Source: Megasphaera sp. MJR8396C (GTDB lineage: Bacteria > Bacillota > Negativicutes > Veillonellales > Megasphaeraceae). From it: a DNA stretch of 64,000 bases. This document shows positions 5,140 through 38,882 of this stretch, piece by piece. The first letter of the stretch is position 1. Each line of letters starts with the position of its first letter. Location of the stretch: contig NZ_KQ958206.1 in assembly GCF_001546855.1 (NCBI RefSeq), positions 64,104-128,103 on the forward strand, written 5' to 3'. The position numbers and the translations under genes were made by a program. Under the pieces are notes generated by a model. The model was given only the letters and a program-made list of their open reading frames with translations. It searched no databases and was not told the DNA's origin.

Positions 5140-5159
5140 GCTATAACTCGATAACTAAA

Positions 5160-5202
5160 CAGCACGAAAGACAAGATAAAGACTGCCTTTCGTGCTGTTT
5201 TG
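5160..5202 (+). terminator. Intrinsic terminator of cyuA
   Basis: CAGCACGAAAG pairs perfectly with CTTTCGTGCTG, followed by TTTT. Confidence 0.9.
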
Positions 5203-5260: not shown

Positions 5261-5289
5261 TGGACAATTTTTTATATTCGTGCTATACT
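5261..5289 (+). promoter_or_regulatory. Promoter of the typA leader RNA
   Basis: TGGACA (5261-5266), a 17-base spacer, and TATACT (5284-5289) with an extended-minus-10 TGC just before it. The expected transcript start is near 5296, about 370 bases upstream of the typA ATG. Confidence 0.65.
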
Positions 5290-5295
5290 AACCTA

Positions 5296-5660
5296 GTTTA
5301 TCGAAGTATCTATCAGAAGACCACCATCTCTAAGATGATGGATGAATGGTCGCAGTTAGTCTTCTGCGTAACCAAAAACGATAACAAAACCATAGCCTTA
5401 GCGCTATCCCGGGCAATACTTGCCTTGGCCGCAGCGTGACACAACGTGGATCATGACGGGTACAAAGAAAAGTAAGCGGAAATTTTTTAACGACCGTGTA
5501 GCGGGCTTTTGGACAGCCCCTTAAGAATAAGGGTATCCTGATAGTGAATTCCCTCGGGATAAATCTATCAGGCGTTAGTCCGTGTATCAAACTTCTTAAG
5601 AATCTTTCACTTCTATTAAGTGATAGAAGTCCAAAACTATGTTGTTATATGAGAGAGAGG
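5296..5660 (+). ncRNA. Long structured RNA or leader upstream of typA
   Basis: This 365-base stretch has no open frame of note but dense potential structure. AGAAGAC (about 5314) can pair with GTCTTCT, while the overlapping CGCAG/CTGCG stem is a mutually exclusive alternative. GGCAA-tac-TTGCC forms a tight hairpin near 5420. A closed junction follows: GGAC and GTCC bracket a perfect CCCTTA/TAAGGG hairpin and a long CCTGATAG/CTATCAGG hairpin with an inner TCCC/GGGA. ACTTCTAT/ATAGAAGT stands near 5609-5630. No T-run follows, so it may be the 5' leader of typA or an RNA processed from it. I could not match it to tmRNA, RNase P RNA, 6S RNA, SRP RNA, T-box or a known riboswitch by eye. Confidence 0.45.
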
Positions 5661-5667
5661 ATATTAG

Positions 5668-7479
5668 ATGGAACGCACAGATATTAGAAACATTGCCATT
5701 ATCGCTCACGTTGACCATGGTAAGACGACCCTCGTCGATGCCATGCTCAAACAGAGCCATGTATTCCGTTCGAATGAAAAGGTAGAAGAACGTGTCATGG
5801 ACTCGGGGGACATCGAACGTGAACGCGGCATTACAATCTTATCCAAAAATACATCGGTCATGCATGAAGGCGTCAAGATCAACATCGTCGACACGCCGGG
5901 GCATGCTGACTTTGGCGGCGAAGTTGAACGCGTACTGAACATGGTTGACGGCGTCCTCCTTTTGGTTGACGCTTTTGAAGGTCCTATGCCGCAGACCAAA
6001 TACGTTTTGCGCAAGGCCTTGGAACAGCAGCTTAAGCCGATTGTCGTCATCAATAAGATCGACAAACCCGGTGCTCGTGTATCGGAAGTCGAAGACGAAG
6101 TCCTGGAACTGTTCATGGAACTCGACGCCAGCGACGAACAGCTCGATTTCCCCGTTGTCTACGCTAATGGCCGTGACGGCATTGCCAAAACGTCCATGGA
6201 TGAAGAAAGCGACAACCTTGAACCCTTGTTCAAGACGATTATTAAATACTGCCCGGCTCCGAATGGTGACCTCGAAGGCCCGCTCCAGTTCATGGTTACG
6301 ACCCTCGACTATGACGACTATGTCGGTAAAATCGCTATCGGCCGTATCGTCCGCGGCAAGATGCGTGCCAACCAGAACGTCGTCGTCACCGACGGTGAAA
6401 GCCAGCGCAAGGCTAAGATTGGCCGCGTCTACACCTATGAAGGCTTAAAGCGCGTCGAACAGGAAGAAGCCGGTATGGGCGAAATCGCCTGCATCGTCGG
6501 CATTCCCGACCTCAAGATCGGTGAAACCGTTACCGACCCGCAGAATCCGGAAGCCTTGCCGCGCATCGACATCGACGAACCGACCTTGTCCATGATTTTC
6601 TACGTCAACGACAGTCCTTTCGCCGGTCAGGAAGGGGACTACGTCACCAGCCGTCACCTCCGCGACCGCCTGTTCCGCGAAATCCAGACCAACGTATCGC
6701 TCCGCGTCGAAGAAACGGACAGCGCCGATGCTTTCAAAGTATCGGGCCGTGGTGAACTCCACATCGCCGTCCTCATCGAAGAAATGCGCCGTGAAGGCTA
6801 CGAACTCCAGATCGGTAAACCCAGCGTCATTACCAAAGAAATCAACGGCCAGCGCTGCGAACCGTTGGAAGCACTGACCATCGACGTTCCGCCTGAATTC
6901 ATGGGCGCTGTCATGGAAAAACTCGGTACCCGTAAAGCCGAAATGGTCAACATGACCGATATTTCCGGTTATACCCGCCTGGAATTCATCATTCCGGCCC
7001 GCGGCCTCATCGGTTTCCGCAGTGAATTCCTGACGGCTACCAAGGGCAACGGCATCATGTACCACGTCTTCCAGGGCTATGCTCCTTGGAAGGGCGATAT
7101 CCCAGGCCGTACGCGCGGCAGCCTGGTAGCCTTTGAATCGGGTACGACGACGGGCTACGGTATCTTCAACCTCCAGGACCGCGGCACGATGTTCATCAAA
7201 CCGGGCCAGGAAATCTACCTCGGCCAGGTCGTCGGTGAAAGCAACCGCGACGTCGACATCGATGTCAACCCCTGCAAGAAGAAACACTTGACCAACACTC
7301 GTTCCTCGGCATCGGACGAAGCACTTCGCTTGACGCCGCCTCAGGATATGGGTCTTGAAAAATCTTTGGAATGGATCAATGACGACGAACTCGTCGAAGT
7401 TACGCCGCAGAGCATCCGTATCCGCAAAGCTATCCTCGACAAACACGACCGTAAAAAGGCTATGCGCCGCGGTCAGTAA
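5668..7479 (+). CDS. typA: Ribosome-binding translational GTPase TypA/BipA
   Basis: This 603-residue translation-factor GTPase acts on the ribosome, assisting 50S assembly and growth under stress or cold. G-domain motifs are [10 protein letters not shown] (G1), DTPGHADF (G3) and NKIDKP (G4); EF-G-like domains follow and the TypA-specific C-terminal domain ([39 protein letters not shown]) completes it. Length is normal. GAGAGAGG precedes the ATG. It sits behind a 370-base structured leader, which suggests post-transcriptional control, and ends at a strong terminator. Confidence 0.97.
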
Positions 7480-38727: not shown

Positions 38728-38745
38728 ATTTAGAGATACATAATG

Positions 38746-38834
38746 AAAGCTAGGGGAGCCTTCGGGCTGAGAAAAGTGCTGGATTACACTTGACCCTTTA
38801 CCTGATGCGGATAATGCCGCCGGAGGGAAGCTTT
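38746..38834 (+). promoter_or_regulatory. TPP riboswitch (THI box)
   Basis: The thi-box core is clear: GGCTGAGA (P2/P3 side), then ACCCTTTACCTGATGCGGAT, AATGCC and GGAGGGAAG. The P1 stem is AAAGCT (38746-38751) with AGCTTT (38829-38834). The same 3' P1 strand, AGCTTTA, can instead pair with TAAAGCT (38844-38850), which would break the terminator behind it. Bound TPP should therefore favour P1 and termination; without it thiC is read. Confidence 0.96.
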
Positions 38835-38844
38835 ACGGGATTAT

Positions 38845-38882
38845 AAAGCTCACCTGCGGAGGCCGCATGGTGGGCTTTTTTT
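38845..38882 (+). terminator. Riboswitch-controlled terminator before thiC
   Basis: AAGCtCACC-tGCGG pairs with CCGC-aTGGTG-gGCTT and a T-run follows, 36 bases before the thiC start. Its 5' strand is shared with the antiterminator. Confidence 0.9.

What the first reader, a model, noticed from the sequence alone, without database searches (positions are those of the whole stretch)
5261..5667. 370-base structured RNA with alternative folds in front of typA
A good extended minus-10 promoter is followed by a long non-coding stretch full of perfect stems, including a closed junction (GGAC...GTCC around two hairpins) and two mutually exclusive stems at the 5' end (AGAAGAC/GTCTTCT against CGCAG/CTGCG). 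The length is far beyond a usual leader and no known class fits by eye. It could be a stable ncRNA or a sensing leader, for example for cold or translation stress, which are TypA conditions.
Basis: partly seen in the sequence, partly recalled or inferred. Interest (0 to 1): 0.65.

Follow-up and report, generated by a model that had tools for sequence, protein, structure and literature searches.

The report
Guide-RNA mini-transposon in typA leader
The "long structured leader" of the typA gene is a 333-base mobile DNA element that jumped in between the gene's promoter and its start; it encodes no protein but carries what looks like a guide RNA for a DNA-cutting enzyme (TnpB) made elsewhere in the genome, plus a second conserved RNA structure that matches no family in the RNA database searched.

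Summary
The structured RNA is real, but it is not a typA regulator. Window 5302-5634 is a 333-bp insertion. The two nearest species have the same typA promoter and start without it (TTTAT|AACTATG), and all 14 other genomes of the genus lack it. The nearest two carry 91-93% identical copies in another gene's leader, a site that is empty in this genome. The ends (TTTAT target, no target duplication, subterminal hairpins, ...TCAA terminus) and the 3' half match the right end/omegaRNA region of TnpB-type IS200/IS605 elements, one of which, with an open tnpB, lies in this genome. It is therefore a non-autonomous IS200/IS605 element of the PATE kind. The 5' half is new: a structured RNA domain in at least 47 copies across Negativicutes. 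21 of 23 of its pairs show compensatory changes. It was absent from every tnpB-bearing element tested and has no Rfam match. Many copies have a sigma-70 promoter ending about 7 nt before the first helix, so these look like mobile, protein-free guide-RNA genes. The window copy lacks that promoter and would be transcribed from typA's. That TnpB uses this RNA in trans is inferred, not shown.

The parts
5261..5289 (+). native typA promoter (-35 TGGACA, extended -10 TATACT)
   Evidence: same promoter directly followed by the short leader in L080/L081
5297..5301 (+). TTTAT insertion target / predicted TAM, 5' flank of the element
   Evidence: empty sites L013/L017 read GTTTAT|AACTATG; TTTAT precedes most copies with an intact left end
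5302..5634 (+). 333-bp non-autonomous IS200/IS605-type element
   Evidence: boundaries from comparison with empty alleles in G012/G013; 91-93% copies elsewhere in the same genomes
5321..5341 (+). left-end imperfect palindrome (CACCATCTCTAAGATGATGG) followed by GATGAATGG
   Evidence: similar to left ends of TnpB- and TnpA-bearing elements
5352..5367 (+). 5' RNA domain, helix P1 (GCAG/CTGC)
   Evidence: 4 of 4 pairs with compensatory changes, 100% of cells paired
5392..5407 (+). 5' RNA domain, helix P2 (ATAGC/GCTAT; ACGGT/GCCGT in the sister subfamily)
   Evidence: 5 of 5 pairs with compensatory changes; also seen on the plain MAFFT alignment
5412..5424 (+). 5' RNA domain, small hairpin GGCAA/TTGCC
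   Evidence: 3 of 3 pairs with compensatory changes, weaker pairing 89%
5428..5461 (+). 5' RNA domain, long irregular hairpin P3 (CCGCAGCGTGACAC...GTGGATCATGACGGG)
   Evidence: 9 of 11 pairs with compensatory changes; missing in a variant group (L123, L195, L196, L202)
5468..5634 (+). right end with omegaRNA-like scaffold, including a remnant of the tnpB 3' end
   Evidence: about 78-82% identical to right ends of tnpB-bearing elements, where the tnpB stop lies inside it; 11 of 48 pairs compensatory
5604..5626 (+). subterminal right-end hairpin, 8 nt before the element's end
   Evidence: covaries among relatives (helix 7)
5635..5650 (+). predicted 16-nt guide (AACTATGTTGTTATAT), host sequence just 3' of the element
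   Evidence: position by analogy with ISDra2 reRNA (PMC8612924); matches the empty typA allele next to TTTAT; inferred
5651..5660 (+). typA ribosome binding site (GAGAGAGAGG), native leader
   Evidence: identical in L080/L081
5668..7479 (+). typA (BipA) coding sequence, 603 aa

Best explanation
The stretch is a non-autonomous IS200/IS605-type transposon copy that inserted, in sense orientation, just after the predicted start of the typA transcript. [quoted passage not shown] In many relatives this RNA has its own promoter and should start at P1. Here that promoter is missing and the typA promoter would make the RNA as part of the typA leader. Inferred mechanism: TnpB encoded elsewhere (for example on contig C58) binds and trims the 3' half, takes the adjoining typA leader bases as guide, and cuts the empty allele TTTAT|AACTATG... 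left behind when the element excises. Repair from the sister chromosome then restores the element. The 5' domain probably stabilises the RNA or replaces the mRNA context it would have in a tnpB transcript. Shown: the insertion, its ends, kinship with the TnpB element, the conserved RNA structure. Inferred: transcription, TnpB use in trans, retention role, role of the 5' domain.
For: Reciprocal occupied/empty sites at typA and the S1-domain gene. All 15 typA leaders of the genus compared; only this one carries the insert. The left flank is TTTAT in most copies with an intact left end and there is no target duplication. 3' ends are constant (GGTTCAA, GTGTCAA or TCCAA) where they could be read, followed by unrelated sequence. 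The right end is shared with tnpB elements, including an open 418-aa TnpB in this genome; its family profile matches Cas12f/TnpB chains in the PDB (E 3e-12). ISDra2 omegaRNA has G at -6, U at -5, C at -3 and A at -2 before the guide (PMC10097598), as in GUUCAA here. The 5' domain: 47 copies, 21 of 23 pairs compensatory, 96.6% of cells paired, 0 of 500 shuffles, slid controls 27-49%. Promoter: 16 of 38 distinct upstream regions have TTGAC-N17-19-TAnnWT, with 6-9 nt to P1 in 14 of the 16 (12 nt in two), against 0.045 in shuffles.
Against: No transcript or protein-binding data exist here. The window's right end is only about 80% identical to that of the TnpB in its own genome, so this TnpB may not accept it. 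That TnpB lacks the usual RuvC-II glutamate at its normal place (alignment). The one Y1 TnpA found in this genome sits in an element with only weakly similar ends. The window copy lacks the internal promoter and could be decaying.
Confidence: 0.68

Rival explanations
1. A passive, decaying PATE: ends kept for transposition, no RNA function. The structure is only end hairpins plus tnpB remnant.
For: PATEs of this build are known (PMC3119063; PMC7290912); the window subfamily lacks the internal promoter; simple deletion derivatives without the 5' domain exist (L038, L045).
Against: The 5' domain was not found in tnpB elements, yet its helices are kept by compensatory changes over a wide range, and a promoter lies at near-fixed spacing before it. 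Passive filler would show neither.
Confidence: 0.18
2. The element has been domesticated as a cis-regulatory leader of typA (riboswitch, thermosensor or transcript stabiliser).
For: Sense orientation between promoter and ribosome binding site, no internal promoter of the usual kind, no terminator-like site in the insert; sister copies sit the same way in the S1-domain gene leader.
Against: Found at typA in 1 of 15 genomes only. The same RNA lies before many unrelated genes and in both orientations (about 23 sense, 12 antisense next genes).
Confidence: 0.08
3. An ORF-less IStron: the 5' half is a group I intron that splices the element out of the typA transcript.
For: Group A IStrons are IS200/IS605 chimeras that insert after TTGAT, ATTAT or TTTAT, and ORF-less copies are known for a group B IStron (PMC4227781).
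Against: Group A IStrons end in TCAG; this family ends in TCAA, with no terminal G. No group I match in Rfam scans of three sets of copies. The 5' domain is about 125-200 nt with a few simple helices and no recognisable P3/P7 core. No positive control with a known IStron was run.
Confidence: 0.04

Closest known systems
PATEs (palindrome-associated transposable elements), Haloquadratum; PATE-like element of Halanaerobium (PMC3119063, PMC7290912)
   Same: No transposase, no terminal inverted repeats, subterminal palindromes, no target duplication; the Halanaerobium one is left end + last 58 nt of tnpB + whole right end, like the outer parts here
   Different: These carry an extra conserved RNA domain, often with its own promoter, that was not found in tnpB-bearing relatives; PATEs were described as degenerate ends
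omegaRNA / reRNA of TnpB elements (ISDra2; PMC8612924, PMC10097598, PMC10278001)
   Same: Right end overlapping the tnpB 3' end, subterminal hairpin within 10 nt of the guide, GUUCAA-type 3' end, insertion target in the place of the TAM, guide position at the 3' flank
   Different: No tnpB in cis; about 125-200 nt 5' domain not seen in the tnpB-bearing relatives; dedicated promoter in many copies
Standalone, trans-acting omegaRNAs reported for IscB (recalled from memory, no paper in the library confirmed it)
   Same: Guide RNA locus apart from the nuclease gene
   Different: Here TnpB type, packaged in a mobile element with left and right ends
IStrons, group A (PMC4227781)
   Same: IS200/IS605 ends, TTTAT-type target, RNA element at the 5' end
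   Different: No group I ribozyme signal, element ends TCAA instead of TCAG

Membership tests
IS200/IS605 family, non-autonomous (PATE) | Insertion 3' of a fixed T-rich penta-nucleotide without target duplication | tested here: met
   TTTAT|AACTATG empty versus TTTAT-[333 bp]-AACTATG filled; TTTAT at most intact left ends
IS200/IS605 family, non-autonomous (PATE) | Subterminal palindromes at both ends, no terminal inverted repeats | tested here: met
   Left-end hairpin 5321-5341, right-end hairpin 5604-5626; similar to ends of TnpA/TnpB elements
IS200/IS605 family, non-autonomous (PATE) | No transposase gene inside; multiple copies at different sites | tested here: met
   No transposase-like ORF in 5302-5634; other copies
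IS200/IS605 family, non-autonomous (PATE) | Mobilised by a Y1 TnpA in trans | not testable with these tools
   One Y1 TnpA in this genome, several in relatives, some with similar left ends; activity unknown
TnpB omegaRNA (reRNA) | Homologous to the right end overlapping a tnpB 3' end | tested here: met
TnpB omegaRNA (reRNA) | 3' stem-loop within 10 nt of the guide | tested here: met
   Hairpin ends at 5626, element ends at 5634; criterion from PMC10278001
TnpB omegaRNA (reRNA) | Conserved RNA secondary structure | tested here: met
   11 of 48 pairs with compensatory changes, 0 of 500 shuffles for four of five measures
TnpB omegaRNA (reRNA) | Expressed, bound and used by TnpB as guide | not testable with these tools
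   needs RNA-seq and biochemistry
Group A IStron | 3' terminus TCAG (terminal G of the intron) | tested here: not met
   Ends read ...TCAA or ...TCCAA; criterion from PMC4227781
Group A IStron | Group I intron ribozyme at the 5' end | tested here: not met
   No group I match in Rfam scans at E<=10 or E<=1; no positive control run
Known cis-regulatory RNA / riboswitch | Match to an Rfam family | tested here: not met
Conserved typA leader element | Present upstream of typA in relatives | tested here: not met
   Absent in 14 of 14 other genomes of the genus

The most novel reading that the evidence does not exclude
A family of transposons that are pure guide-RNA genes: promoter, a new conserved 5' RNA domain and an omegaRNA, with no protein. 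They spread through Negativicutes with TnpA and are kept by TnpB, both borrowed in trans. The 5' domain is an unknown functional RNA that makes trans use possible or controls it. In this genome one copy has put its guide under a housekeeping promoter.
Probability: 0.45. Interest if true: 0.75.

Novelty: new variant of a known kind. Interest (0 to 1): 0.6.

Why it matters
Protein-free IS200/IS605 derivatives were seen as decayed ends. If these are transcribed guide-RNA genes with a selected RNA domain, parasites of TnpB elements exist that carry only the guide. It would then become testable whether TnpB serves elements in trans, and what the new RNA domain adds. The domain itself is a structured RNA with strong covariation that is not in Rfam. 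For annotation, it shows that a "long structured leader" can be a mobile insertion.

Tried and rejected
Known riboswitch or ncRNA: rejected by Rfam scans of the window and of ten other loci. The weak COG3610-DE (E 0.063) and CRISPR-DR9 (E 0.03) matches on L006 are far below their gathering scores. typA-specific leader: rejected. IStron: see membership test. Phage or plasmid origin: no plasmid match for the sister element, no phage match for the window element, no viral-contig match to the right-end core; one viral hit to a P3 pattern (L214) lies in unrelated sequence and is taken as chance. A search with a family-f14 copy hit plasmids of Campylobacter, Helicobacter, Bifidobacterium and others over 39-67 bases in the hits listed, starting at its left end: probably end hairpins only. 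5' domain as part of tnpB elements: not found in any tnpB-bearing locus tested (L179 holds a separate copy). Strong orientation bias towards downstream genes: only modest, with dependent copies. Single-sequence PDB search of TnpB: nothing at 1e-3, resolved with a profile. A library search for standalone TnpB guide RNAs found no direct precedent; the library is incomplete.

Full report
WHAT IS THERE. The typA gene (5668-7479, 603 aa) has a good extended -10 promoter (TGGACA-17-TATACT, 5261-5289). About 370 non-coding bases follow, with no Rfam match at gathering; five weak matches at E<=10 lie far below their gathering scores. The leader folds somewhat better than shuffles (z -1.95).

IT IS AN INSERTION. 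A search of 100 genomes with the leader gave two telling results. Both genomes hold 91-93% identical copies of the middle part at another place, the leader of an S1-domain gene. Reading the junctions gives empty CCTAGTTTAT|AACTATGTTG and filled CCTAGTTTAT-[5302-5634]-AACTATGTTG. The S1 site is the mirror image: filled in G012/G013, empty in this genome (L096, ACGTTTATCAGCTATGCTG). Of 15 typA leaders in the genus, 14 lack the insert. The typA leader proper is about 40 nt.

WHAT KIND OF INSERTION. The 3' half (5468-5634) is about 78-82% identical to the right end of tnpB-bearing elements, in which the tnpB stop codon lies inside the matching stretch. One such element is in this genome on contig C58. 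Its 418-aa protein matches OrfB_IS605 (E 3e-25) and the Cas12f1-like TNB domain, and a profile of its family finds solved Cas12f/TnpB structures (E 3e-12). It has the NADxN motif of 'derived' TnpBs as defined in PMC10278001; the usual RuvC-II glutamate is not at its normal place in the alignment. Left ends share a hairpin with TnpB- and TnpA-bearing elements. The 5' flank is TTTAT, there is no target duplication, and the 3' ends that could be read are ...TCAA or ...TCCAA followed by unrelated sequence. This is the anatomy of a non-autonomous IS200/IS605 element (PATE, PMC3119063; compare the PATE-like element of Halanaerobium, PMC7290912).

THE 5' HALF IS NEW. Seven full-length relatives fall into two subfamilies, A (window, L002, L003) and B (L006, L007, L015, L024), about 71% identical over 314 bases. 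Already on a plain alignment the 5' half shows compensatory changes, for example ATAGC/GCTAT against ACGGT/GCCGT. A covariance model of this half alone (R1) found copies in 24 of 380 Negativicutes genomes. Eighteen of these are in one family (f14) far from the training set, with E down to 5e-16, often several copies per genome, and often at contig ends as expected of repeats. The flanks examined are again tnpB-less elements, with the same kind of ends where both could be read. On 47 copies, 21 of 23 pairs have compensatory changes, 96.6% of cells pair, no shuffle of 500 reaches the observed values, and sliding the partner by 1-3 columns drops pairing to 27-49%. That alignment is fitted to the model, so the size of the signal is somewhat inflated; the same helices on the unfitted alignment are the independent check. 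The helices are P1 (GCRG...CYGC around UUAG), P2, a small hairpin, and P3 (CCGCAGCG...GACGGG); one variant group lacks P3. The 5' domain was not found in any tnpB-bearing locus tested.

A PROMOTER IN FRONT OF IT. Of 38 distinct upstream regions, 16 carry TTGAC-N17-19-TAnnWT with the -10 ending 6-9 nt before P1 in 14 cases and 12 nt in two; mononucleotide shuffles give 0.045. The RNA should therefore start at P1. Subfamily B has TGGTATAAT near this place. Subfamily A, with the window copy, lacks it (alignment gap), so here the only evident promoter is typA's.

HOW IT MOST LIKELY WORKS. In ISDra2 the TnpB guide RNA is the right end plus about 16 nt of 3' flank, the TAM equals the insertion target, and TnpB is proposed to cut the empty donor joint, which would favour restoration of the element (PMC8612924). 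TnpB trims the 5' side of its omegaRNA (PMC10278001). The ISDra2 scaffold has -6G, -5U, -3C and -2A before the guide (PMC10097598), as in GUUCAA here. Applied to this copy, the guide would be AACTATGTTGTTATAT (5635-5650) and the target the empty typA leader next to TTTAT. A TnpB from another element would have to act in trans. Transcription, TnpB binding and the retention role are inferred. The role of the 5' domain is unknown; stabilising the RNA or replacing the tnpB mRNA context is the guess offered.

ALTERNATIVES. A passive PATE does not explain the selected RNA structure and the placed promoter. A domesticated typA leader is possible for this single copy but cannot explain the family. An ORF-less IStron shares the TTTAT target but fails on the 3' end (TCAG in group A, PMC4227781) and shows no group I signal; no positive control for the group I model was run.

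LIMITS. No transcript data were available. Next-gene orientation (about 23 sense, 12 antisense) is only suggestive. The paper library is incomplete, so absence of a precedent is weak evidence.

Noticed in passing
window 38742-38845: TPP riboswitch (67.7 bits) followed at about 38920 by a possible thiC start; ordinary
   Followed up: no
window 5158-5200: Inverted repeat AACAGCACGAAAG...CTTTCGTGCTGTTTT just after the upstream gene, probably its terminator; weak miRNA-model hits there are chance
   Followed up: no
L012, L016, L021, L025-L027, L036, L044, L050, L055: Megasphaera NM10 (and one in G007) carry many tnpB-type right ends in which the second scaffold hairpin is replaced by a stretch like TTTCAGGAGGAAACTTAAACAGCAA, a shorter right-end variant
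   Followed up: partly
L038, L045: Goat-rumen MAG RGIG3558 has mini-elements that keep a tnpB-type leader and lack the new 5' domain: simple core deletions, a natural control group
   Followed up: partly
L123, L192, L195-L197, L200, L202, L204: Variant of the 5' domain without the P3 hairpin but with P1 and P2; most have a segment like GCAAGGCTGCAGTATTGTATAAGTCCGGCAAAG instead
   Followed up: no
L213 (G274), L121 (G253), L125 (G234): Copies of the element lie in sense orientation just upstream of ftsZ-like, rubrerythrin-like and aldo-keto reductase-like genes (read by eye from the sequence)
   Followed up: partly
L009 1593-2849: The TnpB of this genome has NADVN in RuvC-III but no glutamate at the usual RuvC-II place; EQEESYTS about 45 residues further on may supply it
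   Followed up: partly
L032-L035 (G000 contigs C47, C13, C43, C46): A second, different tnpB family in this genome, mostly at contig ends, flanked by CGACTCCCTCTTATAGAAG...GAGCTTGTAAGTCAG ends; several copies with runs of N
   Followed up: no
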